A DNA stretch of 64,000 nucleotides from Citrobacter sp. R56 (lineage in GTDB: Bacteria > Pseudomonadota > Gammaproteobacteria > Enterobacterales > Enterobacteriaceae). The notes under the pieces were generated by a model. The model saw only the letters and a list, made by a program, of their open reading frames with translations, searched no databases and was not told where the DNA came from. The position numbers and the translations under genes were made by a program. Shown here in pieces: positions 23,550 through 36,176 of the stretch (its first letter is position 1; each line of letters opens with the position of its first letter). The DNA lies in contig NZ_CP069159.1 of NCBI RefSeq assembly GCF_016811995.1, positions 4,216,001 through 4,280,000 on the forward strand. Reading direction: 5' to 3'.

Positions 23550-24212
23550 TCAATTTCGCCAGGACGCCGTCGCTGCCATTAACTGGCTAGCGCGCCGTTT
23601 GTCCTCTGCAACCAATACGACCCCCTGGCATTTTTGATCCGGAGAAATACTCCAGATACGCTCCTCAGGAATACAGCCGCCATCATAAATGACCTTACTG
23701 CCATCATAGGGCCAGAATGCCCCTTGTTCCGTATCTAACACAAAAACGGAAATCTGATCGGACTCACGCGCGATCTTTTGCCAGAGCATTTTCCCACCAT
23801 CGTACTGCTCAAAATCACTGATAAGCGTGATACCGCATCGCAGAATCAGAGCCTCATACAAACGTGTCGCCAACCCTTTATCGCGTTCAACCGGTTCAAC
23901 ACAGATACCTTCCACCTGAAGCACGTTGGTCTCTTCCCAACAGCGTTCAACGGCAACGATATCCTTCCCTAAGGCGTCTTTTCGCTGTAAATCGAGAGCC
24001 GCAATGACACGATGGCGGGGAACGCCTTCAAACATTTCAACGTCCGCTTCGATAATGGCCGCTCTTGGCGTCTGAGGGTCATAAATGACGTGCAAAACCC
24101 GTCCTGAAAGTTCAAATTCTTCCACGACGTTAAAAGAGCGGGCGACAGTCATTGGGCTGTACGTTGTGGGCATCACAATCATCTGTGAGTCACCTTTTGT
24201 CAGTACCGGCAT
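23550..24212 (-). CDS. Unrecognised acetyltransferase-like protein
   Basis: I cannot name this 220-residue protein. The centre has EGICVEPVERDKGLATRLYEAL (paraphrased: a VEP...GLATRL block at about 105-120), which resembles the acetyl-CoA binding motif A of GNAT enzymes. The rest gives no strong family. There is no signal peptide or membrane segment. The start at 24212 has an AAGGAA site seven bases upstream. It lies 146 bp downstream of the hybrid kinase on the same strand, so it could be cotranscribed, but nothing else links them. Confidence 0.7.
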   Translation of the reverse strand: MPVLTKGDSQMIVMPTTYSPMTVARSFNVVEEFELSGRVLHVIYDPQTPRAAIIEADVEMFEGVPRHRVIAALDLQRKDALGKDIVAVERCWEETNVLQVEGICVEPVERDKGLATRLYEALILRCGITLISDFEQYDGGKMLWQKIARESDQISVFVLDTEQGAFWPYDGSKVIYDGGCIPEERIWSISPDQKCQGVVLVAEDKRRASQLMAATASWRN

Positions 24213-24358: not shown

Positions 24359-26671
24359 TCAATTCGTCTGCTGTTCTGTTGCCACATTCGCTGGCGCACT
24401 GTCGCTTTTTATCACTGCCTGATGCAGCGCCTGCACAAGCTGTACCCGGGTAAACGGTTTACGCAACAGCGCCACATCCGGCAGTGCAGGATTGTCTGCC
24501 GGGCGTAAATCCTGACCGCTGATCAGCAGCAGCGTCAGATGGGGATAGTGTTTCAGCGCATGATTCACCACATCCGCGCCGCTTAACCCGCCGGGTAGCA
24601 TTAAGTCACTGATAAAAATGTCGATCTCTGAGGAGGCGGCGAGCATCTGCATCGCCTGCTCGCCGTTGACGGCTTCCAGCGTCAGGTAGCCCAACAAATG
24701 CAGCTGCTCGCACAGCGTCTGGCGTACATCGGCCTCATCTTCGAGAACCAGAACCAGTTTATCCGTGCGGGCCACATCCTCCTCTGCCAACGGTTCCGCA
24801 GCGGTCGCAACAGGTACAATCGCGCGGGGCAGTTGCAGTCTGACTATCGTTCCCTGCCCCGGCGCACTCTCGATTTCCACCCGTCCGCCGGACTGGCGCA
24901 CAAATCCGTACACCATAGACAGCCCCAGGCCACTGCCGCTGCCGGTCTGTTTGGTGGTGAAGAACGGCTCAAAAACCTGCGCTTTGATCTCCTGCGACAT
25001 CCCGCAGCCGTGATCCGCTATCTCCAGAATCACCATATCCTCTTTGCGCCCGCTGGTGCGGGTGACTCGCTGGTTCCAGGTACGAATTTTGATGGTACCC
25101 ATCTGCCCCTCCATCGCATCGCGGGCGTTCATCACCAGATTGATGAGGGCATTCTCCAGTTGGCTAACGTCAATCCACGCGGGCCAGGCGGGCGACTGGG
25201 CTTCAATGTCCAGCGTCAGGGTCGCGGGCAACGAGTGACGCATCAGTTCGCCAAGATTCTCCAGCAACGTTCTCAACTCCACCGCATGGGGATGCAGGGA
25301 CTGTTTGCGGGAAAAGGCCAGTAACCGCTGGGTCAGCAACGCCCCACGTTCCGCCGCTTTCAACGCCCGCGAAATACGCGCCGCATCCGGCGAGTCGGGA
25401 TTAACCAGCTCCAGACTGCCAATGATCACCGCCAGCAGATTGTTAAAGTCATGCGCCAGCCCTCCCGTCAGTTGCCCTACCGCTTTCATTTTCTGGCTGT
25501 GCAGCAGCGCTTCCTCCAGCCCTTTGCGTTCGATTCGGTCGAGTTCCAGTTGCGTGCTTTTTTCCTTCAATAGGCGCGAGGTGTGCTCCAGCGAGGCGGT
25601 ATTACGGGCAAAAACGTTGAACGCACGCGCCAGCTCTCCCAGTTCGTCGCGCCGCTGTAAGGCAGGGACGCTGACGTCCGACTCGCCGTGTGCCAGGCGG
25701 GTCATTGCCCGCGAGATAGCCGTCAGGTTGGAGCCGAGATTGCGATAAATATACCAGCCCGCAAAACCGGTAATGACAATCGCCAGCAGGGCAAATGTCA
25801 TGATAAACATGATGATAGACTGCAACTCCTGATGGCTTTGCGCCACACGCTGCTCTGAACTGGCCGCCACCTGCGCCACATATTGATTGATGTCGCTGTT
25901 GAGGATCGCCACCAGCGCTTTGATGTGGAACATATGCCAGATGATCGCCAGATCGCTTTGTTCCAGCGCCGCCGAGAGCGGTTCAAGCTGGAGTAATTCC
26001 TGATTGAAGTCACTGAGGATGCCATTGACCAGCGGGCGGGCGTTACGCGTTGGCAACAGAGGCATCACGCCATCCAGCTGCTTGACCACCGAGCGCGGCG
26101 TGGGCGTTTCGATGGCCGCCACAATCAGCCTGTCCATCTGAGCAAGCAACACCGCATCCTGCGCCGCATTGATCGTTTGCAAATGCCGCAGATAGCTCAA
26201 ATTCTGATACAGCGAACTCAGTAGCGCGTTACGCTCCAGATGCCGTCGCTGCCCGCGCTGGAGCATGCCCGCCACGCTGGTTTGCAGTTCGTTGCTGCGC
26301 TGGATGATGCGGGCGACCAGGTCCGGCTCCTGCTGCGCCAGCGGGGCGGCGGCCAGTTGTTCCAACGACTGTTTCAGCGCACGCTGCGTCTCCTGTAAGC
26401 GTTCCGCCTCACTTTTATATTCCAGCGCGCCAACCACCTGTGACAGTCGCACTGCCGCCGTCGCCACGTTGGCGGTGTCGCGCGCCAGATTCATGCTGCC
26501 GGTCATATCATCAACCGTCTGCTGTTGTACCTGCTCCTGAATCTGGCTGGCGTGCCGAAAACCGAGCACCGCCACGCCGCTCACCATCAGCGTGACCGCC
26601 ACCACCAGCAGGTTAAAGAACAGCAATCGCCCGCGCGCGCTGGCGAAAAAGTGACGCCCAGGCTGCGGCAT
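24359..26671 (-). CDS. Hybrid sensor histidine kinase with receiver domain
   Basis: This membrane sensor kinase has 770 residues. Order of parts: TM1 (about 17-38), a long mostly helical periplasmic domain (about 40-285) resembling the TorS-type sensor, TM2 (about 287-308), HAMP (about 309-362), a coiled linker, a kinase core with H-box LAHDFNNLL and His407, N-box NLVMNARDAM, G-boxes DHGCGM and GSGLGLSMVYG, and a C-terminal receiver (about 638-755) with Asp689. I see no HPt domain. The ATG at 26671 has GGAG six bases upstream; 26683 is an alternative. The open frame reaches 27577 but that part is antisense to the transporter gene. It is divergent from the sugar operon, and its probable partner regulator is at the other end. 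Confidence 0.85.
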   Translation of the reverse strand: MPQPGRHFFASARGRLLFFNLLVVAVTLMVSGVAVLGFRHASQIQEQVQQQTVDDMTGSMNLARDTANVATAAVRLSQVVGALEYKSEAERLQETQRALKQSLEQLAAAPLAQQEPDLVARIIQRSNELQTSVAGMLQRGQRRHLERNALLSSLYQNLSYLRHLQTINAAQDAVLLAQMDRLIVAAIETPTPRSVVKQLDGVMPLLPTRNARPLVNGILSDFNQELLQLEPLSAALEQSDLAIIWHMFHIKALVAILNSDINQYVAQVAASSEQRVAQSHQELQSIIMFIMTFALLAIVITGFAGWYIYRNLGSNLTAISRAMTRLAHGESDVSVPALQRRDELGELARAFNVFARNTASLEHTSRLLKEKSTQLELDRIERKGLEEALLHSQKMKAVGQLTGGLAHDFNNLLAVIIGSLELVNPDSPDAARISRALKAAERGALLTQRLLAFSRKQSLHPHAVELRTLLENLGELMRHSLPATLTLDIEAQSPAWPAWIDVSQLENALINLVMNARDAMEGQMGTIKIRTWNQRVTRTSGRKEDMVILEIADHGCGMSQEIKAQVFEPFFTTKQTGSGSGLGLSMVYGFVRQSGGRVEIESAPGQGTIVRLQLPRAIVPVATAAEPLAEEDVARTDKLVLVLEDEADVRQTLCEQLHLLGYLTLEAVNGEQAMQMLAASSEIDIFISDLMLPGGLSGADVVNHALKHYPHLTLLLISGQDLRPADNPALPDVALLRKPFTRVQLVQALHQAVIKSDSAPANVATEQQTN

Positions 26672-26785
26672 ATCACGCTCCATGAAGAAAAATATCACTA
26701 TGACAAATATGAACGGCTTCTGACATTTTGCATTTACTTTCCTGTGATGGACTGCTGATATCGACAACCCCGCAGGAGATCCGCC

Positions 26786-28306
26786 ATGAGCAGGGCACCG
26801 GTTCTGGAGATGCGCAATATTGCCAAAGCCTTTGGCAAATTTTACGCACTGAAAGGGGTCGATCTGACGGTATATCCCGGCGAAATCCACGCATTGATGG
26901 GTGAAAACGGTGCGGGAAAAAGCACCCTGATGAAGGTGCTTGCCGGGGCGTACAGCGCCACCAGCGGCGAGATCCTGATTGACGGTCAGCCTTTCCATAT
27001 CAAAGGGCCAAAAGATGCCCTGAGTGCAGGCATTACCCTGATTTATCAGGAGATGCAGCTCGCCCCGAACCTGACGGTCGCTGAGAACATTTTCCTCGGC
27101 AGCGAACTGTCGCGCGGCGGACTGGTGCAACGCAAAGAGATGGTTCTTCAGGCGCAGCAGGTTATCGACCGCCTCGGCGCACAGTTTAAAGCCAGCGATA
27201 AAGTGATGCGGCTGACCATCGCCGAACAACAGCAGGTGGAAATCGCCCGCGCCCTGCACCGCAACAGCCGAATTCTGGTGATGGATGAACCCACCGCCGC
27301 CCTCTCCTCGCGTGAAACCCACCGCCTGTTTGAACTGATCATGCGCCTGCGTGATGAAGGGATGGCGATTATCTATATCAGCCACCGCATGGCGGAAGTG
27401 TACGAGCTTTCGGATCGGGTCAGCGTGCTGCGCGACGGGCAGTACGTCGGCAGCCTGACCCGCGACAAACTCAACGCCGCCGAACTGGTGCGCATGATGG
27501 TGGGTCGGCCACTGAGCGATCTGTTTAACAAAGAGCGCGATATTCCACTCGGAAATGTGCGCCTGAACGTGCATCACCTGACCGACGGCGGCAAAGTGCA
27601 GCCGTGCAGTTTACTGGTGCGTTCCGGGGAAATTGTCGGCCTGGCAGGACTGGTCGGCGCCGGGCGATCTGAACTGGCGCAACTGATTTTTGGCGTACGC
27701 AAAGCCACCGGCGGCATGATTGAAGTGGATGGCGAGCCGGTGGTGATCCACTCCCCACGCGAAGCCATCGACTATGGCATCGGTTATCTCACCGAGAACC
27801 GCAAAGAACAGGGGCTGTTTTTAGAGCTGGCAGCGGCGGAGAACATCACCATGGCGACGCTGGAGCGTGACGCCACCTGGGGCATGCTCAACCGTAAAAA
27901 AGCGCAGACGATCTCCGACGATGCCATTAAGTTACTCAACATCCGTGTGCCACATGCGCAGGTGCGGGCGGGCGGGCTTTCCGGCGGCAACCAGCAAAAG
28001 CTGTTGATTTCGCGCTGGGTGGCGATTGGTCCGCGCATTTTGATCCTTGATGAACCGACGCGCGGCGTGGATGTCGGCGCCAAAAGCGAGATCTATCGCA
28101 TCATGAATGACATGGCGCGCCAGGGCGTGGCGATCCTGATGATCTCCAGCGAACTGCCAGAGGTCGTCGGCATGAGCGATCGGGTGTACGTCATGCACGA
28201 AGGCAGCATTGCCGGAGAGCTGGACGGAAAACACATTTCTCAGGAAAACATTATGACGCTGGCCACCGGCGCGAACGACTCCCACCCTCAGGCGAGGCAC
28301 CCATGA
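26786..28306 (+). CDS. Sugar ABC transporter ATPase, duplicated type (RbsA/AraG-like)
   Basis: This cytoplasmic ATPase of a CUT2-family monosaccharide importer has 506 residues and two fused ABC halves. The first half has Walker [10 protein letters not shown] (about 38-46) and Walker [12 protein letters not shown]. The second has the degenerate Walker [10 protein letters not shown] and signature [14 protein letters not shown] with [12 protein letters not shown], the usual asymmetry of this family. It is the first gene of the sugar operon, divergent from the hybrid kinase over a 114-bp gap, and overlaps the permease gene by four bases. The K-12 als operon has an analogous transporter at a similar map site but the downstream enzymes differ. 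Confidence 0.93.
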
Positions 28307-29298
28307 ATAATTCACCCACTCCCCAGCAGGTGGCGAAATCCGCCTCCGCCAAAAAAATGCTGATGGGCGATCTGATGCAAACCATCGGCATCCTGCCCAT
28401 TCTTATCCTGATTGTTGCCGTGTTTGGCTTTATCGCGCCCAACTTTTTTACCGAGAGCAACCTGCTGAATATTACCCGCCAGGCATCGATCAACATCGTG
28501 TTAGCGGCGGGCATGACCTTCATCATTCTGACCGGCGGTATCGATCTTTCTGTCGGTTCGATTCTTGGCACCACGGCGGTGGCGGCGATGGTGGTTTCAC
28601 TGATCCCTGAATTCGCCATGCTCTCTGTGCCCGTCGCGCTGATGCTCGGCATGCTGCTGGGCTTGTTTAACGGCGCGCTGGTGGCCTTTGCCGGACTGCC
28701 GCCGTTTATCGTCACTCTCGGCACCTACACGGCGTTGCGCGGGGCAGCCTACCTGCTGGCGGACGGCACCACGGTGATTAACTCCAATATCAGCTTCGAG
28801 TGGATCGGCAACAACTATCTCGGACCAATTCCGTGGCTGGTGGTGATTGCGCTGGCGGTCATTATGATGTGCTGGTTTATTTTGCGCCGCACCACGCTGG
28901 GCGTTCATATCTACGCAGTCGGCGGCAATATGCAGGCGGCGCGCTTAACCGGCATCAAAGTGTGGCTGGTGCTGCTGTTTGTATACGGCATGAGCGGCCT
29001 GCTCTCCGGGCTTGGCGGGGTGATGAGTGCCTCACGTCTGTACAGCGCCAACGGCAACCTGGGCATGGGTTACGAACTGGACGCCATTGCCGCGGTGATC
29101 CTCGGCGGCACCAGTTTTGTCGGCGGGATCGGCACGATCACCGGCACGCTGGTGGGGGCGTTGATCATTGCCACCCTCAACAACGGCATGACACTGATGG
29201 GCGTCTCCTACTTCTGGCAACTGGTGATCAAAGGGGCGGTGATCATCATTGCGGTGCTGATCGATAAATACCGTACCCGACATCATCAAAGTGCATAA
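28303..29298 (+). CDS. Sugar ABC transporter permease (RbsC-like)
   Basis: This is an inner-membrane permease of a CUT2 importer, 331 residues with about ten hydrophobic segments. Family hallmarks are the [10 protein letters not shown] block after the second segment, [20 protein letters not shown], and the C-terminal [19 protein letters not shown] coupling region. It overlaps the ATPase gene by four bases. A REP pair follows, before the binding-protein gene. Confidence 0.93.
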
Positions 29299-29302
29299 CA
29301 CA

Positions 29303-29362
29303 CCTGCCGGCCTTATCCGTCCTACAAGCCCGTAGGGCTGATAAGCGTAGCGCCATCAGGCA
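29303..29362. repeat. REP-like pair between permease and binding-protein genes
   Basis: GCCGGCCTTATCCGTCCTAC is followed by GTAGGGCTGATAAGCG and CGCCATCAGGCA, two facing REP-type units. They fill the permease-binding protein gap, as often in operons where the binding protein is made in excess. Confidence 0.8.
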
Positions 29363-29398
29363 ATGACAACAAAAAGTACCCTACGTGAGGAAAAGACT

Positions 29399-30340
29399 AT
29401 GCGTTTGAAGCCATTAGTAACCGCGCTCTGTGCAGGCGCGCTGCTGACCGCAGCACCGTTTACGCAGGCCAAAGATCTCAAATCGATCGGCGTGACGGTG
29501 GGCGATCTTGCCAATCCGTTCTTCGTGCAGATAACCAAAGGCGCGGAGCTGGAAGCCCGCAAGCTGGCGGGTGACGGCGTGAAAGTGACGCTGGTTTCCA
29601 GCGGTTACGATCTGGGCCAGCAGGTGTCGCAGATAGACAACTTTATCGCCGCCAAAGTCGACATGATCATTCTTAATGCGGCGGATTCTAAAGGGATCGG
29701 CCCGGCGGTGAAGCGGGCAAAAGACGCGGGGATCGTGGTCGTCGCGGTTGACGTCGCGGCGGAAGGCGCTGATGCCACCATTACCTCCAATAACACCCAG
29801 GCGGGGGAAATGGCGTGTAAATACATCACCGATCGCCTGAAAGGTAAAGGCAATGTGGTGATCATCAACGGGCCGCCGGTATCTGCCGTACAGAACCGGG
29901 TGGAAGGCTGCCAGACCGAATTCAAAAAACATCCAGATATCAAGGTACTTTCCGATAACCAGAACGCCAAAGGCAGTCGTGAAGGCGGACTGGAAGTGAT
30001 GACCGCCCTGCTGGCGGCGAATCCGAAGATCGACGGTGTGTTTGCGATTAACGATCCGACGGCGATCGGTGCCGATCTCGCGGCAAAACAGGCGCAACGT
30101 AACGAGTTCTTTATTGTCGGTGTCGATGGCAGCCCGGATGCAGAAGAGGCGCTGAAGCGTGAGAACTCGCTGTTTGTCGCCACGCCTGCGCAAGATCCAC
30201 AGGTTATGGCGGCAAAAGCGGTAGAGATCGGCTATGACATTCTACAGGGGAAACCTGCGCCGAAAGAGCCTGTGCTGATCCCGGTGACGATGATCGATAA
30301 GAGCAACGTCAGCGGCTATAAGGGTTGGACGGTGAAATAG
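29399..30340 (+). CDS. Periplasmic sugar-binding protein (RbsB-like)
   Basis: This is the periplasmic binding protein of the CUT2 importer, 313 residues. A signal peptide of about 23 residues ends PFTQA. The mature protein is a type I (RbsB) fold with NPFFVQITKGAE near the start, ILNAADSKGIGPAVK, INGPPVSAVQNRVEGC and FAINDPTAIGADLAA. Ligand cannot be read from sequence; the adjacent isomerase suggests lyxose, mannose, fructose or a similar sugar. The ATG at 29399 has GAGGAAA upstream; an in-frame start at 29363 lacks support. Confidence 0.92.
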   Translation: MRLKPLVTALCAGALLTAAPFTQAKDLKSIGVTVGDLANPFFVQITKGAELEARKLAGDGVKVTLVSSGYDLGQQVSQIDNFIAAKVDMIILNAADSKGIGPAVKRAKDAGIVVVAVDVAAEGADATITSNNTQAGEMACKYITDRLKGKGNVVIINGPPVSAVQNRVEGCQTEFKKHPDIKVLSDNQNAKGSREGGLEVMTALLAANPKIDGVFAINDPTAIGADLAAKQAQRNEFFIVGVDGSPDAEEALKRENSLFVATPAQDPQVMAAKAVEIGYDILQGKPAPKEPVLIPVTMIDKSNVSGYKGWTVK

Positions 30341-30353
30341 CGGAAAGCGGCCT

Positions 30354-30390
30354 CTGCCCAGGCCTGATAAGCGCAGCGCCATCAGGCCTG
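30354..30390. repeat. REP-like element between binding-protein and isomerase genes
   Basis: CCCAGGCCTGATAAGCGC and GCGCCATCAGGCCTGG form a hairpin of REP type in the 82-bp gap. Confidence 0.75.
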
Positions 30391-30422
30391 GAAGGCGACA
30401 TCACACAAGGAGAATCCAGTCC

Positions 30423-31106
30423 ATGAAACGCTCCGAAATAAACGAAATCCTCGGTCATACACGGCAGTTTTTTTCCATGCATGACGTCCATCTTCCGCCC
30501 TTCGCCAGTTTTGCGCCAACGCAATGGCGACAGCTGGATGCCGACGCCTGGCGTGAAGTGTTCGATCTCAAGCTCGGCTGGGATGTGACGGCTTTTGGCG
30601 GGGAAAACTTTGCCGCCTTAGGGTTAACGCTGTTTACCCTGCGCAACGGTTCACCCAACGCCTTCCCTTACGAAAAGTGCTACGCCGAAAAAATCATGCA
30701 TGTGCGGGACGCGCAAATCACGCCGATGCATTTTCACTGGCGCAAGCATGAGGACATCATCAATCGCGGCGGCGGTAATCTGATCGTGGAGTTATGGAAC
30801 GCCGACGCCCACGATCAAACAGATAACAGTGCTGTCACGGTGGTGATTGATGGCTGCCGACAAACTCATGCGGCGGGCAGCCAGTTGCGCCTGATGCCCG
30901 GAGAGAGCATCTGCCTGACGCCCGGTCTGTATCACAGCTTTTGGGCAGAGTCTGGCTTCGGCGATGTGCTGGTCGGCGAAGTCTCTTCCGTCAATGACGA
31001 CGACCACGACAACTACTTCCTGCAGCCACTCGCCCGTTATAACGACATTGAAGAAGATGAACCGGCGCAACTGGTGCTGTGTAACGAGTATCGACTGTTC
31101 CGTTGA
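30423..31106 (+). CDS. D-lyxose ketol-isomerase (cupin-type sugar isomerase)
   Basis: The enzyme interconverts D-lyxose with D-xylulose and, in the E. coli O157:H7 homologue, also D-mannose with D-fructose. It has 227 residues and a cupin fold. The metal ligands of the O157 enzyme are all present at the same numbers: His103, His105, Glu110 (in MHFHWRKHED) and His171 (in GLYHSFW). It starts with an AAGGAG site upstream. It lies between the transporter genes and the aldolase, so it should act first on the imported sugar. The true substrate is not decided by sequence. Confidence 0.9.
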   Translation: MKRSEINEILGHTRQFFSMHDVHLPPFASFAPTQWRQLDADAWREVFDLKLGWDVTAFGGENFAALGLTLFTLRNGSPNAFPYEKCYAEKIMHVRDAQITPMHFHWRKHEDIINRGGGNLIVELWNADAHDQTDNSAVTVVIDGCRQTHAAGSQLRLMPGESICLTPGLYHSFWAESGFGDVLVGEVSSVNDDDHDNYFLQPLARYNDIEEDEPAQLVLCNEYRLFR

Positions 31107-31120
31107 ACAAGGAGGCTGTT

Positions 31121-31981
31121 ATGCCACTGATTTCTCTTGCTGATGGGCTCGCCCACGCCCGTGAGCATCGCTACGCGTTAGGGGCGTTTAACGTGCTGGA
31201 TTCCCACTTTTTGCGCGCGCTGTTTGCCGCTGCGAAACAGGAACGCTCGCCGTTTATCATCAATATTGCCGAAGTGCATTTTAAGTATGTCTCGCTGGAT
31301 TCACTGGTCGAGACAATTAAATTCGAGGCTGCCCGCCACGACATTCCGGTGGTGCTTAATCTTGACCACGGTCTGCATTTTGAATCGGTGGTTCAGGCGC
31401 TACGTCTGGGCTTTAGTTCGGTGATGTTTGACGGCTCGACACTGGAGTATGAAGAGAACATTCGCCAGACCCGCGAAGTGGTGAAAATGTGCCACGCCGT
31501 GGGCGTATCCGTAGAGGCTGAACTGGGGGCCGTCGGCGGTGACGAAGGCGGCGCGCTGTATGGTCATGCCGACGAATCGCTGTTTACCGATCCGCTGCTG
31601 GCGCGGGACTTCGTCGACAGAACCGGGATTGACGCCCTCGCGGTCGCCATCGGCAACGCGCACGGTAAGTACAAAGGCGAGCCGAAACTCGACTTCCCAC
31701 GCTTAGATGAGATCCGCCAGCAGGCCGCGATCCCCCTGGTGCTGCACGGCGGTTCCGGCATCAGCGACGCGGATTTTCGTCGCGCCATCGAACTGGGCAT
31801 TCACAAAATCAACTTCTACACCGGAATGTCGCAGGCGGCGCTGGCCGCCATCGAATTGCGCATGACGAACCGCCAGCCGCTGTACGATGAATTTGCCGAG
31901 CTATTGCTGGGCATTGAGGCCGCAATTACCGATACCGTCTCTGAGCAAATGCGCATTTTTGGCAGCGCGGGGCAAGTGTGA
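31121..31981 (+). CDS. Class II ketose-(bis)phosphate aldolase
   Basis: This is a zinc-dependent aldolase of the FbaA/GatY/KbaY family, 286 residues. Visible motifs are LDHG with Asp82 and His83 (catalytic base and zinc ligand), FDGSTLEYEENI, EAELG, GNAHGKYKG, LHGGSGI and KINFYT (phosphate and DHAP binding). The ATG at 31121 is chosen for its GGAGG site five bases upstream; a TTG at 31103 overlaps the isomerase. Known relatives cleave fructose or tagatose bisphosphates. In this operon it may cleave a ketose phosphate made by the neighbouring kinase. Its stop shares a base with the kinase start. Confidence 0.9.
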   Translation: MPLISLADGLAHAREHRYALGAFNVLDSHFLRALFAAAKQERSPFIINIAEVHFKYVSLDSLVETIKFEAARHDIPVVLNLDHGLHFESVVQALRLGFSSVMFDGSTLEYEENIRQTREVVKMCHAVGVSVEAELGAVGGDEGGALYGHADESLFTDPLLARDFVDRTGIDALAVAIGNAHGKYKGEPKLDFPRLDEIRQQAAIPLVLHGGSGISDADFRRAIELGIHKINFYTGMSQAALAAIELRMTNRQPLYDEFAELLLGIEAAITDTVSEQMRIFGSAGQV

Positions 31982-32982
31982 TGGAACGCAAAGGCATCAT
32001 CGCTGCGGGCAATATGCTGGTCGATCACGTGCATCAAATTGTGCAGTGGCCGGAGCGCGGCTGGCTGGCGGAAATTAGTCACAGCGAGCGTTCCACGGGC
32101 GGCGCGCCGCTCAACGTCTTGTTGACGCTGGCAAAAATGCATACCGGTTTGCCTTTGCAGGCGGTGGGGCTTATCGGTCAGGACAGCGACGGCGACTACA
32201 TTATGGCGATGCTGGAGCAGTATCATGTCAATCGCCAGCATGTGCAGCGCACCACCTTCGCGCCGACCTCAATGTCGCAAGTGATGACCGACCCCAGCGG
32301 CCAGCGCACCTTTTTTCACTCGCCTGGCGCGAACCGCCTGCTGGATCTGCCCGCCTTTGATCGGCTCGACAACACGATGAAAATCTTCCATCTCGGTTAT
32401 CTGCTGCTGCTCGACAGTCTGGATATGCCGGATGGCCAGTACGGTACGCGCAGCGCGCGGCTGTTGGCGCAGATGCGCGAGAATGGGTTTGAAACGTCGC
32501 TGGACCTGGTCTCGCGCAAGGGCGACCCGCGTTATCAGCCGCTGGTGTTGCCCACGTTGCCTTATCTTGATTATCTGGTGATTAACGAGCTGGAAGCCGG
32601 GGAGTTCAGCGGTCTGGAGATTCGTTATCCGGACGGCGGGCCGCATATTCCGCACATCGCCAGCATCGCGCGGGAGTTGCTCAACGCGGGCGTTCGACAG
32701 CGCGTGGTGATCCACTGCCCGGAAGGGGCGTGGGGGGAAACGCCGGACCAGCCTGGCGTCTGGATACCGTCGCAGAAACTGGCGCAGGAGGAGATCGTCG
32801 GCAGCGTTGGCGCAGGCGACGCCTTTTGCGCGGGCTTCCTGTACGGCTGTCATGAGTCATGGTCACTGGCCGACAGCATTACGCTGGCGCATGCCTGCGC
32901 ACGGGCTAGCCTGCTGTGTGCGAACGCCATTGACGGCGCCAAAACGCTGGCGGAGTTAAAAGCGGAAATGCCTGCTACTTGA
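31981..32982 (+). CDS. PfkB-family sugar kinase
   Basis: This is a ribokinase-superfamily carbohydrate kinase of 333 residues. The first signature region is STGGAPLNVLLTLAKM (about 38-53) and the second GSVGAGDAFCAGFLYG (about 272-287), with the catalytic Asp in GAGDA. It starts at an ATG sharing a base with the aldolase stop; GTG three bases earlier is possible. It would phosphorylate the ketose made by the isomerase. Whether the product is a 1-phosphate or a later bisphosphate cannot be told. It is the last gene of the operon. Confidence 0.9.
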   Translation: MERKGIIAAGNMLVDHVHQIVQWPERGWLAEISHSERSTGGAPLNVLLTLAKMHTGLPLQAVGLIGQDSDGDYIMAMLEQYHVNRQHVQRTTFAPTSMSQVMTDPSGQRTFFHSPGANRLLDLPAFDRLDNTMKIFHLGYLLLLDSLDMPDGQYGTRSARLLAQMRENGFETSLDLVSRKGDPRYQPLVLPTLPYLDYLVINELEAGEFSGLEIRYPDGGPHIPHIASIARELLNAGVRQRVVIHCPEGAWGETPDQPGVWIPSQKLAQEEIVGSVGAGDAFCAGFLYGCHESWSLADSITLAHACARASLLCANAIDGAKTLAELKAEMPAT

Positions 32983-32989
32983 TGAATTG

Positions 32990-33006
32990 TGTAGGCCGGA
33001 TCACCA
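32990..33006. repeat. Truncated REP beside the regulator gene end
   Basis: GTAGGCCGGATCAC is one arm of a REP with no second arm, abutting the response-regulator stop. It looks like a REP broken at this junction. Confidence 0.5.
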
Positions 33007-33009
33007 ACA

Positions 33010-33741
33010 TTATGCCGCCTTGTCGTGATGCTGGACGTCGGCGGCAAACACATACCCCAGACCGCGTATCGTTTTTATGAGCGTCGGCTGGTGCGGATTG
33101 GCTTCGATTTTGCGGCGCAAACGCATGATTAACACATCAATGGTACGGTCAAACACCTCGATGCTGTCGCTGTGCGTGAGCGCCAGTAACTGCTCGCGGC
33201 TCAACACCCGACGGGCATTTTGCGCCAACGCCAATAGCAGACTGTACTCCCCTTGCGTCAGATCTATCGTTTGCTGCTGCGGATCACGCAACTGGCAACG
33301 CCCGGTATCCAGATGCCAGCCGTTAAAAGAAAGGCCGCAGATTTGCGTCACGCCGCCTTCGGCTACCGGTACGCCGCCCCGGCGCAACACGGCTTTGACG
33401 CGCGCCACCACCACCCGGGGATTAAACGGTTTGCAGATGTAATCATCCGCCCCCATTTCCAGCCCCACCACCACATCAGACTCGCTGCTTATCCCTGTCA
33501 ACATCACCACGGGCAACGTCGGCCTGATTTTCTGGACCTGCTGCAACACCATCAATCCGTTGATGTCGGGCAGCATCATGTCCAGCAGTACCAGCGCAAT
33601 CTCGGGGCGCTCTTCGACGCAACGTATCGCCTCCTGTCCGGTATGGCAGGTGGTGACCGCAAAAACATGCTCGCTCAACACATCCTGCAGCAGTGCGCAG
33701 ATTGCGGTGTCATCATCCACGATCAAAACAGCAGGCTTCAT
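33010..33741 (-). CDS. OmpR-family response regulator next to the sugar operon
   Basis: This DNA-binding response regulator has 243 residues. The receiver domain (about 1-118) has DDD (9-11), phospho-acceptor Asp54 in LLDMMLP, and Lys in ICKPF. The winged-helix domain (about 130-236) ends TIRGLGYVF. It is convergent with the kinase gene of the operon. Of two adjacent ATGs (33744 and 33741) the second has the better spacing from AGGGG. The hybrid kinase at the far end of the operon has no other regulator beside it, so the two are the likely pair. Confidence 0.88.
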   Translation of the reverse strand: MKPAVLIVDDDTAICALLQDVLSEHVFAVTTCHTGQEAIRCVEERPEIALVLLDMMLPDINGLMVLQQVQKIRPTLPVVMLTGISSESDVVVGLEMGADDYICKPFNPRVVVARVKAVLRRGGVPVAEGGVTQICGLSFNGWHLDTGRCQLRDPQQQTIDLTQGEYSLLLALAQNARRVLSREQLLALTHSDSIEVFDRTIDVLIMRLRRKIEANPHQPTLIKTIRGLGYVFAADVQHHDKAA

Positions 33742-34028: not shown

Positions 34029-36176
34029 ATGAAAAAAGTCGTCACGGTTTGCCCGTATTGCGCATCAGGTTGCAAAATCAACCTGGTGGTCGATAACGGC
34101 AAAATCGTTCGGGCGGAGGCGGCGCAGGGGAAAACCAATCAGGGTACCTTGTGTCTGAAGGGCTATTATGGCTGGGATTTTATCAATGATACCCAGATCC
34201 TGACCCCACGCCTGAAAACCCCTATGATCCGTCGCCAGCGTGGCGGCAAACTGGAATCCGTGTCCTGGGATGAAGCGCTGAATTACGTTGCTGACCGCCT
34301 GAGCGCCATCAAAGCGAAGTATGGCCCGGATGCCATTCAGACTACCGGCTCCTCCCGCGGTACCGGTAATGAAACCAACTATGTAATGCAAAAATTCGCG
34401 CGCGCCGTTATTGGTACCAATAACGTTGACTGCTGCGCTCGCGTCTGACACGGCCCATCGGTTGCAGGTCTGCACCAATCGGTCGGTAACGGCGCAATGA
34501 GTAATGCTATCAATGAAATTGATAACACAGATTTAGTGTTCATCTTCGGGTATAACCCGGCGGATTCCCACCCTATCGTGGCGAATCACGTGATCAACGC
34601 TAAACGTAACGGGGCGAAAATTATCGTCTGCGATCCGCGCAAAATCGAAACTGCGCGTATTGCCGATATGCACGTTGCATTGAAAAACGGCTCGAATATC
34701 GCGCTGCTGAATGCGATGGGCCACGTCATTATTGAAGAAAACCTGTACGACCAGGCGTTTGTCGCCTCCCGTACGGAAGGGTTTGAAGAGTATCGTAAGA
34801 TTGTCGAAGGCTATACGCCGGAGTCCGTCGAAGACATTACTGGCGTTAGCGCACAGGAAATTCGTCAGGCTGCGCGTATGTACGCGACCGCGAAAAACGC
34901 GACAATCCTGTGGGGCATGGGTGTTACCCAGTTCTACCAGGGCGTCGAAACCGTGCGTTCACTGACCAGCCTCTCCATGCTGACCGGCAACCTCGGTAAA
35001 CCAAGCGTGGGCGTTAACCCGGTGCGTGGCCAGAACAACGTTCAGGGCGCCTGCGACATGGGTGCGCTGCCGGATACTTATCCGGGCTACCAGTACGTGA
35101 AGTTCCCGGAAAACCGCGAGAAATTCGCCAAAGCCTGGGGCGTGGAAAGTCTGCCTGCACATACCGGCTATCGCATCAGCGAACTGCCGCACCGTGCGGC
35201 GCATGGCGAAGTTCGCGCCGCGTACATCATGGGTGAAGATCCATTACAGACCGATGCGGAACTCTCTGCTGTGCGCAAAGGGTTTGAGGATCTGGAACTG
35301 GTCATCGTGCAGGACATCTTCATGACCAAAACCGCCGCTGCCGCAGACGTTATTTTGCCGTCTACGTCATGGGGTGAGCATGAAGGCGTCTTCTCTGCCG
35401 CTGACCGTGGTTTCCAGCGCTTCTTCAAAGCGGTTGAGCCGAAGTGGGATCTGAAAACAGACTGGCAAATCATCAGTGAAATCGCGACCCGTATGGGCTA
35501 TCCGATGCACTACAACAACACCCAGGAAATCTGGGATGAGTTGCGCAATCTGTGCCCAGAATTCTACGGTGCCACCTACGAGAAGATGGGCGAACTGGGC
35601 TACATCCAGTGGCCATGCCGCGATACGTCGGATGCCGATCAGGGGACCTCTTACCTCTTTAAAGAGAAGTTCGACACCCCGAACGGCCTGGCGCAGTTCT
35701 TCACCTGTGACTGGGTAGCGCCTATCGACAAGCTCACCGAAGAGTATCCGATGGTGCTCTCCACGGTGCGTGAAGTCGGCCACTACTCTTGCCGTTCGAT
35801 GACCGGCAACTGTGCGGCGCTGGCAGCACTGGCGGATGAACCTGGCTATGCGCAAATCAATACCGACGACGCTGAGCGTCTGGGTATTAAAGATGAAGAG
35901 CTGGTGTGGGTTAACTCACGCAAGGGCAGAGTCATCACCCGTGCAGCCGTGAGCGATCGTCCGAACAAAGGCGCGATTTACATGACCTATCAGTGGTGGA
36001 TTGGTGCATGTAATGAACTGGTGACCGAGAACTTAAGCCCGATTACCAAAACGCCAGAGTATAAATACTGTGCCGTCAACGTTGAACGCATCGCCGATCA
36101 GCGCACTGCCGAACAGTATGTGATTGACGAGTACACCAAGCTGAAAACCCGCCTGCGCGAAAGTGCGATGGGCTGA
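34029..36176 (+). CDS. fdhF: Formate dehydrogenase H, selenoprotein FdhF
   Basis: FdhF oxidises formate to CO2 in the formate hydrogenlyase complex on the cytoplasmic side of the inner membrane. The coding region is 716 codons and reads through an in-frame TGA (34446-34448), codon 140, which encodes selenocysteine in the context CCARV-U-HGPSVAGLHQ. The N-terminus has the [4Fe-4S] motif CPYCASGCK (about 8-16) and a further Cys in GTLCLKGYYGWD. The rest is a molybdopterin oxidoreductase with bis-MGD binding blocks such as GMGVTQF and SRKGRV. It is monocistronic: sigma-54 promoter upstream, strong terminator downstream. Gene callers that treat TGA as stop will split it at this codon. Confidence 0.97.
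34446..34485 (+). promoter_or_regulatory. Selenocysteine UGA and SECIS hairpin in fdhF
   Basis: The TGA is followed by sequence that folds into the bacterial SECIS form. The apical stem is TGCAG/CTGCA with a bulged T and a GT loop (about 34460-34476), the elements read by SelB in E. coli fdhF. Confidence 0.85.

What the first reader, a model, noticed from the sequence alone, without database searches (positions are those of the whole stretch)
24359..33741. Sugar operon flanked at both ends by the halves of a two-component system
Six genes (CUT2 ABC importer, cupin-type lyxose/mannose isomerase, class II aldolase, PfkB kinase) are bracketed by a hybrid histidine kinase on the left and an OmpR-type regulator on the right. 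Neither has another partner in the window. Kinase and regulator genes are normally adjacent. The enzyme order predicts import, isomerisation to a ketose, phosphorylation and aldol cleavage, perhaps through a ketose 1-phosphate giving DHAP plus an aldehyde rather than the usual xylulose 5-phosphate or fructose 6-phosphate route. Sensing by a membrane hybrid kinase is unusual for a sugar operon and may involve the periplasmic binding protein.
Basis: partly seen in the sequence, partly recalled or inferred. Interest (0 to 1): 0.72.

Follow-up and report, generated by a model that had tools for sequence, protein, structure and literature searches.

The report
Sugar operon bracketed by its regulators
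The split pair of regulator genes around this sugar-import operon is real, and is the Citrobacter version of a lyxose/mannose system already tested in one E. coli pathotype; comparing genomes shows that the arrangement is old and widespread and hints that the importer's binding protein helps the sensor detect the sugar.

Summary
A hybrid kinase (24359-26671, minus) and an OmpR-type regulator (33010-33741, minus) bracket a six-gene importer/isomerase/aldolase/kinase operon. It is the orthologue of LmvK/LmvR with lmuXYZIAK, tested in E. coli O157:H7 in 2023 (PMC10128022), so the main idea is in print.

Added here: of 392 family genomes, all 76 with the kinase have the regulator; in 75 of 75 with both on one contig they bracket, 3.7-20 kb apart, never adjacent. 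The importer lies between them in 75 of 75; isomerase, aldolase and kinase in 63, 51 and 56. The LmvR site lies 83-92 bp before lmuX in all 114 distinct regions scored. A genome of another family keeps the whole bracket. The sensor is predicted to have the TorS fold (Z 18.6; McpS 17.8); TorS works with a periplasmic binding protein. One genome that keeps kinase and regulator without the importer has lost the sensor domain.

Most likely: mannose/lyxose-induced local control, LmuZ perhaps the co-receptor (inferred). New member of a known kind.

The parts
24359..26671 (-). lmvK orthologue: hybrid histidine kinase (TM - helical periplasmic sensor - TM - HAMP - HisKA - HATPase - receiver; no PAS or Hpt match); alternative start 26683
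   Evidence: 81% identical to the E. coli loci; His 408 and receiver Asp 690, numbered from 26674, conserved in every aligned row that reaches them
25805..26551 (-). periplasmic sensor domain of the kinase, predicted TorS-type helical fold (borders approximate)
   Evidence: best Z 18.6 with TorS sensor 3i9y (rmsd 2.5, 211 residues); McpS 17.8 is tied
26698..26712 (+). LmvR-type direct-repeat site CTATGA-CAA-ATATGA in the divergent promoter region
   Evidence: EHEC footprint ATATGA-N3-ATATGA (PMC10128022)
26786..28306 (+). lmuX orthologue: CUT2 ABC ATPase
   Evidence: 93% to E. coli
28303..29298 (+). lmuY orthologue: CUT2 permease
29363..30340 (+). lmuZ orthologue: periplasmic sugar-binding protein (a later start, about 29396, is possible)
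   Evidence: 96% to E. coli; PDB 4rwe at 556 bits
30423..31106 (+). lmuI orthologue: D-lyxose/D-mannose isomerase
   Evidence: PDB 3kmh/3mpb at 451 bits
31121..31981 (+). lmuA orthologue: class II ketose bisphosphate aldolase family (ORF opens at TTG 31103)
31978..32982 (+). lmuK orthologue: PfkB-family sugar kinase
   Evidence: no PDB sequence match at E 1e-10
33010..33741 (-). lmvR orthologue: OmpR/PhoB-type response regulator, convergent with lmuK
   Evidence: 79% to E. coli

Best explanation
This is the Citrobacter orthologue of the LmvK/LmvR two-component system with its lmuXYZIAK operon. A sugar (D-mannose and D-lyxose, by orthology) reaches the periplasm and is bound by LmuZ. The kinase, predicted to carry a TorS-type helical sensor, becomes active; the phosphoryl group reaches LmvR, which binds the direct repeat at 26698-26712 and switches on lmuX and the genes behind it. 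LmuXYZ imports the sugar, LmuI makes the ketose, and LmuK and LmuA are accessory steps. Shown by others in E. coli EDL933: regulator pair, target site, inducers, fructokinase activity of LmuK (isomerase activity cited there from earlier work). Shown here: orthology, invariant architecture, site conservation, predicted sensor fold, loss patterns. Inferred: that LmuZ is the co-receptor (about 0.45), and how phosphate passes the kinase's own receiver (direct or receiver-gated transfer as in VirA/VirG, or a borrowed Hpt).
For: Same gene order and 79-96% protein identity to two E. coli loci. Function of that system: PMC10128022. Co-occurrence 76 of 76 and bracketing 75 of 75. Importer in 75 of 75 bracketed loci, isomerase, aldolase and kinase in 63, 51 and 56. 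LmvR site 83-92 bp before lmuX in all 114 distinct regions scored, 112 with 10 or more of 12 matches against 1.7 expected from mononucleotide shuffles; exact TATGACAANNATGA once in the 4.71-Mb genome. Complete bracket with site in a genome of another family of the order. Sensor fold TorS, Z 18.6. G003: kinase without sensor, importer absent. L207: XYZ - kinase - second binding protein - small kinase - regulator.
Against: McpS, a ligand-binding domain solved with malate and succinate, ties with TorS (Z 17.8), so the fold does not prove a binding-protein partner; no Foldseek match passed E 0.001 and its first row was a ciliary protein. The sensor-loss case is a single genome. G208 and G217 carry parts of the set without the complete bracket. 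No recognisable LmvR site lies before the window's own lmvR, though EHEC LmvR is autoregulated. With up to 2 mismatches the repeat is not enriched in the window (5 matches, 2.2 expected). No experiment in Citrobacter was found. An Hpt partner is unidentified: the genome's four Hpt matches lie in frames of 701-921 aa elsewhere.
Confidence: 0.88

Rival explanations
1. LmvK binds the sugar itself through its helical sensor; LmuZ serves import only, and the importer is kept simply because a sugar system needs one.
For: The sensor model matches McpS, solved with malate and succinate, nearly as well as TorS (Z 17.8 against 18.6). The EHEC authors drew sensing by LmvK, without naming a binding protein.
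Against: The importer, not the enzymes, is the invariant partner; the genome that lost it also lost the sensor; in L207 a second LmuZ-like protein sits between kinase and regulator. None of these is decisive.
Confidence: 0.35
2. Signalling follows transport or an internal product (permease coupling, or metabolite sensing by the cytoplasmic part), not a periplasmic ligand.
For: Some orthologues carry a PAS-type insert between HAMP and HisKA (19 of the 47 rows scored; PAS_7 in L209 and L204); the importer is invariant.
Against: The window kinase and 26 other distinct sequences lack the insert, and the window kinase keeps the large periplasmic domain; the enzymes are dispensable.
Confidence: 0.15
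3. The bracket is a recently acquired virulence island, as described for OI167 in EHEC.
For: Patchy in E. coli: 401 of 5426 genomes in each of two searches; described as a horizontally acquired island tied to EHEC.
Against: The bracketed loci of the family sample fall in 30 genera. phn genes and/or fdhF lie beside it in 71 of 80 named loci, both in 45. Divergence of its genes from an E. coli locus is like that of the flanking phn genes (fourfold sites 49-69% against 48-65% identical; near saturation, so weak). Differential loss at an old address fits better.
Confidence: 0.12
4. Chance neighbours: kinase and regulator are two orphans that happen to flank the operon.
For: They are not adjacent, and each could have other partners.
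Against: 76 of 76 co-occurrence, 75 of 75 same bracket; deletion of either gene lowered operon expression on mannose in EDL933.
Confidence: 0.01

Closest known systems
LmvK/LmvR with lmuKAIZYX (OI167) of E. coli O157:H7 EDL933, PMC10128022 (abstract, sections 5, 7, 8, 10, 12 and passages read)
   Same: Same eight genes, order, domain plan and LmvR direct-repeat site; 79-96% protein identity to the two E. coli loci compared here (EDL933 itself was not fetched)
   Different: Other genus; not tied to EHEC; CTATGA instead of ATATGA in the first half-site; no site found before lmvR
TorS/TorT/TorR (PDB 3o1h, 3o1i, 3o1j: TorS sensor with TorT; from listings)
   Same: Helical periplasmic sensor fold; hybrid kinase; OmpR-type regulator (recalled for TorR); binding protein of the same superfamily (LmuZ matches the TorT model weakly, 44.5 bits against cut-off 200)
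   Different: About 12% identity in the sensor; no Hpt match in LmvK; LmuZ is also part of an importer
VirA/VirG with ChvE (PMC4705274, abstract read)
   Same: Hybrid kinase with terminal receiver, a ChvE-sugar signal; the receiver recruits the regulator
   Different: LmvK and LmvR score far below the VirA-like and VirG cut-offs; no such operon bracket known to me
AauS/AauR with AatJ of Pseudomonas syringae (PMC7386598, abstract read)
   Same: Importer locus whose binding protein and two-component system were co-opted to control a type III system
   Different: Amino acids, not sugars; homology not tested
LevQRST of Streptococcus mutans (PMC3043104, abstract read)
   Same: Fructose/mannose sensing by a kinase plus sugar-binding proteins
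   Different: Two carbohydrate-binding proteins, controls a PTS; homology not tested

Membership tests
LmvK/LmvR-lmuXYZIAK system | kinase - XYZIAK - regulator in this order and orientation | tested here: met
LmvK/LmvR-lmuXYZIAK system | LmvR direct repeat ahead of lmuX | tested here: met
   11 of 12 positions at 26698-26712
LmvK/LmvR-lmuXYZIAK system | phospho-accepting His and receiver Asp of LmvK conserved | tested here: met
   His in 124 of 124 rows, Asp in 123 of 123 rows that reach it; the window is in the alignment twice, as 'ref' and 'window'
LmvK/LmvR-lmuXYZIAK system | induction by mannose and lyxose through LmvK/LmvR | not testable with these tools
   shown in EDL933, not in Citrobacter
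LmvK/LmvR-lmuXYZIAK system | autoregulation of lmvR through a site of its own (reported for EHEC; I do not count it as defining) | tested here: inconclusive
   no site with 2 or fewer mismatches ahead of 33741; more degenerate sites would be missed
D-lyxose/D-mannose isomerase NF051472 | score above curated cut-off | tested here: met
   432 bits against 350
TorS/TorT-type binding-protein-coupled kinase | TorS-type helical sensor fold | tested here: met
   predicted model, Z 18.6, rmsd 2.5 over 211 residues; McpS tied at 17.8
TorS/TorT-type binding-protein-coupled kinase | signalling through a bound periplasmic binding protein | not testable with these tools
   only indirect support
TorS/TorT-type binding-protein-coupled kinase | C-terminal Hpt domain (recalled for TorS) | tested here: not met
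   no Hpt match in LmvK at E 0.001
VirA/VirG | equivalog score to the VirA-like and VirG models | tested here: not met
   204 bits against cut-off 647 for PRK13837; VirG model 177 against 344

The most novel reading that the evidence does not exclude
The core is a signalling unit in which the importer's binding protein LmuZ is an obligate co-receptor of the split LmvK/LmvR pair. The enzymes are an exchangeable payload, and the virulence role in EHEC is a late co-option of an old sugar sensor shared by Enterobacteriaceae and a second family (probably Pasteurellaceae).
Probability: 0.42. Interest if true: 0.55.

Novelty: new member of a known kind. Interest (0 to 1): 0.38.

Why it matters
It moves a system described as an EHEC island to an old, widespread sugar-sensing unit. 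It makes the open question of how LmvK detects mannose testable (binding-protein deletion). It also offers a natural experiment: a genome that lost the importer and, with it, the sensor domain.

Tried and rejected
Chance neighbours: rejected by co-occurrence. A solved-structure sequence search with the sensor profile found no relative (best E 0.23); only the fold comparison did. Aldolase and kinase sequences did not settle the phosphate position: family scores and PDB matches are to bisphosphate aldolases (the longer-chain aldolase YdjI is also in the list), and LmuK has no PDB sequence match at E 1e-10. A search for EspA (PF03433) in the own genome found nothing, but nothing rang in the 14 controls either, so it shows nothing. 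The promoter/terminator consensus scan gave nothing useful (promoters 2 found, 4.5 expected; terminators 14 found, 10.6 expected). A first attempt to measure the PAS insert was placed wrongly and gave no information; it was redone by motif distance, where 77 of 124 rows lacked the exact motifs and were left out. In one search, 158 stretches went in; 114 distinct regions were scored; L141 (length 0) and L186 (3577 bases) were dropped, identical regions were counted once, and stretches without a match near both gene starts were skipped. In the order-wide sensor search a fragment with stops (G560, E 9e-5) was ignored. L205 and L206 are decayed copies and were only described. The second structure job was not used.
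Full report
What is there. The ORFs as listed overlap by a few bases at lmuX/lmuY, lmuI/lmuA (if lmuA starts at TTG 31103) and lmuA/lmuK; lmuK and the regulator are convergent with 27 bases between them. The kinase start is 26671 or 26683 rather than the start of the 1072-aa ORF.

What it is. Two searches of 5426 E. coli genomes each gave 401 genomes with at least 80% of the query half; the listed full-length hits are 80.4% and 78.6% identical in DNA (I did not check that the two sets of 401 are the same genomes). Two annotated loci show the identical order: kinase, lmuX, Y, Z, I, A, K, regulator, with phn genes on the left; protein identities are 79-96%. This matches OI167 of EHEC, whose kinase and regulator were named LmvK and LmvR and whose operon lmuKAIZYX was tested in 2023 (PMC10128022; abstract, sections 5, 7, 8, 10, 12 and passages read). 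There, deletion of either regulator lowered operon expression on mannose; LmvR bound ATATGA-N3-ATATGA ahead of lmuX; mannose and lyxose induced the operon; lmuI and lmuZYX, but not lmuK or lmuA, mattered for growth on lyxose; LmuK had fructokinase activity. On mannose, deletions had no effect in the wild type or within 50 h in a manA mutant; only LmvR overproduction revealed a contribution. The authors proposed an unknown Hpt.

Is the bracket more than local? In 392 genomes of the family (drawn evenly from a larger group), the kinase's sensor region hit 79, of which three at E about 1e-3 were set aside; the regulator hit 79 at E 1e-50 or better, one at 42% identity set aside. All 76 kinase genomes have the regulator. 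In one (G282) they are on different contigs; in the other 75 they are on one strand, bracket the interval in the same orientation and are 3.7-20.2 kb apart. Of 66 genomes with the isomerase above cut-off, 64 have both. Two genomes have the regulator without a kinase hit: G208, where LmuY, LmuZ, LmuI and the regulator remain and no kinase or orthologous LmuX is in the 16 kb fetched, and G003 (below). G217 has isomerase, aldolase and kinase genes with neither importer nor regulators in the 14 kb fetched.

What lies between. I fetched these 75 loci and mapped the window proteins. LmuX, LmuY and LmuZ are present in 75 of 75, though in pieces in L040 (a genome rated 49% complete) and, for LmuX, in L043. 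The isomerase is in 63, the aldolase in 51, the kinase in 56 (partial in L043); combinations: all three 50, isomerase only 12, none 7, kinase only 4, isomerase plus kinase 1, aldolase plus kinase 1. The aldolase never occurs without the kinase (0 of 51); the kinase occurs without the aldolase in 5. Six of 30 genera hold more than one combination, so the enzymes have been lost or gained repeatedly while regulators and importer stayed. Among 80 named loci (the best 80 of 144; Citrobacter, Escherichia, Enterobacter, Leclercia, Kosakonia, Raoultella, Klebsiella pneumoniae, Buttiauxella and others), 77 show X, Y and Z; the other three lie at contig ends. Fourteen stretches end before, or do not show, the regulator, most because of contig ends or inserted DNA that I did not resolve one by one.

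The exception. G003 has the regulator (69%) and a kinase whose HAMP-PAS-kinase-receiver part is intact (76% over the kinase part), but the periplasmic domain is gone: the first membrane helix runs almost straight into the second. The importer is absent and an acyltransferase-SGNH protein lies between them, all three on one strand. It is one genome; a search of its genus returned no other genome.

Beyond the family. In an order-wide sample of 295 genomes, one genome of another family (f9, about 2.1 Mb; Pasteurellaceae is my inference from genome size, not tested) has the whole set regulator-K-A-I-Z-Y-X-kinase, with LmuZ 78%, regulator 53%, LmuK 32% and a sensor at 26-30% identity, and a TTATGACAAATATGA site before lmuX; two relatives hold decayed copies. 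In a third family, L207 has X-Y-Z, a kinase with PAS and a weak receiver match, a second LmuZ-like binding protein (43%), a uridine-kinase-like protein and an OmpR-type regulator in a row.

The promoter. The best match to the EHEC repeat lies 83-92 bp ahead of lmuX in all 114 distinct regions scored; 112 match at least 10 of 12 positions, against 1.7 expected from mononucleotide shuffles. In the window it is CTATGA-CAA-ATATGA at 26698-26712. The strict form TATGACAANNATGA occurs once in the 4.71-Mb genome, here; with one mismatch there are 23 more, against 15 matches in all for the reversed control pattern. So in this organism LmvR looks like a mainly local regulator. No site was seen ahead of lmvR itself; with up to two mismatches the window has 5 matches against 2.2 expected, not an excess.

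The sensor. AlphaFold2 on 42 sequences gave mean pLDDT 82, pTM 0.62. Foldseek found nothing at E 0.001; TorS-TorT complexes ranked second, fourth and sixth (E about 0.002) among long-helix proteins. VIA-align put TorS first (3i9y Z 18.6, 2.5 A, 211 residues), McpS at 17.8, TorS-TorT complexes at about 17, PilJ and McpZ at 16. The tool notes that helical models without a clear match typically reached 14; these stand above that. TorS works with TorT, a binding protein of the LmuZ superfamily; LmuZ itself matches the TorT model weakly (44.5 bits, cut-off 200). McpS was solved with malate and succinate, so direct binding remains open.

Phosphorelay. The phospho-accepting His is conserved in 124 of 124 rows and the receiver Asp in 123 of 123 that reach it. 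There is no Hpt match in LmvK; the genome's four Hpt matches are parts of frames of 701-921 aa far from the locus. VirA/VirG is a precedent in which the kinase's receiver recruits the regulator (PMC4705274, abstract).

Origin. phn genes and/or fdhF lie beside the locus in 71 of 80 named loci, both in 45 (some stretches were too short to show both). Divergence of the eight genes from an E. coli locus is like that of the neighbouring phn genes, although fourfold sites are near saturation. This fits an old locus, lost in most E. coli, better than a recent island; the published reading is acquisition.

Literature. Searches for lmvK/lmvR, OI167, lmuKAIZYX and combinations with lyxose isomerase, Citrobacter, Klebsiella and sensor kinases showed, among the rows listed (some searches matched more papers than were listed), only PMC10128022 on this system; 'periplasmic' does not occur in its main text. 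Within that library and those searches I saw no report of LmuZ as co-receptor or of the family-wide bracket.

Verdict. Real, ordinary in kind, already tested in one organism; the comparative pattern sharpens it to an importer-plus-sensor core with exchangeable enzymes.

Noticed in passing
L209 565-6059 (genome G003): Regulator, an acyltransferase-SGNH-DUF7024 protein and a kinase lacking its periplasmic sensor stand in a row on one strand; the importer is absent.
   Followed up: partly
window 24359-26671; L046, L062, L209 and others: Some orthologues carry a PAS-type insert of roughly 87-99 residues between HAMP and HisKA (19 of 47 rows scored); the window kinase and 26 other distinct sequences lack it.
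   Followed up: partly
L207 1712-10458: Importer XYZ, kinase, second LmuZ-like binding protein, uridine-kinase-like protein and OmpR-type regulator in one row, which looks like a version with a dedicated sensing binding protein.
   Followed up: partly
L205 and L206 (family f9): Decaying copies of the bracket: broken or missing importer and enzyme genes beside a kinase frame that is still open in L206.
   Followed up: no
L037, L046, L081, L102: Unrelated gene blocks (by eye: insertion-element, siderophore-uptake, fimbrial and VgrG-like genes) lie between operon and regulator, or within the operon, while the bracket is kept.
   Followed up: no
L109 (G208) and L110 (G217): Partial sets: regulator with LmuY, LmuZ, LmuI but no kinase or orthologous LmuX; and LmuI, LmuA, LmuK with no importer or regulators in the stretch.
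   Followed up: no
window 34029-36176: Formate dehydrogenase fdhF appears as two ORFs parted at 34448, as expected for a selenocysteine TGA (inferred).
   Followed up: no
window 23550-24212: Acetyltransferase-like ORF (220 aa) beside lmvK, 83% identical to one in an E. coli locus; no Pfam match at E 0.001.
   Followed up: no
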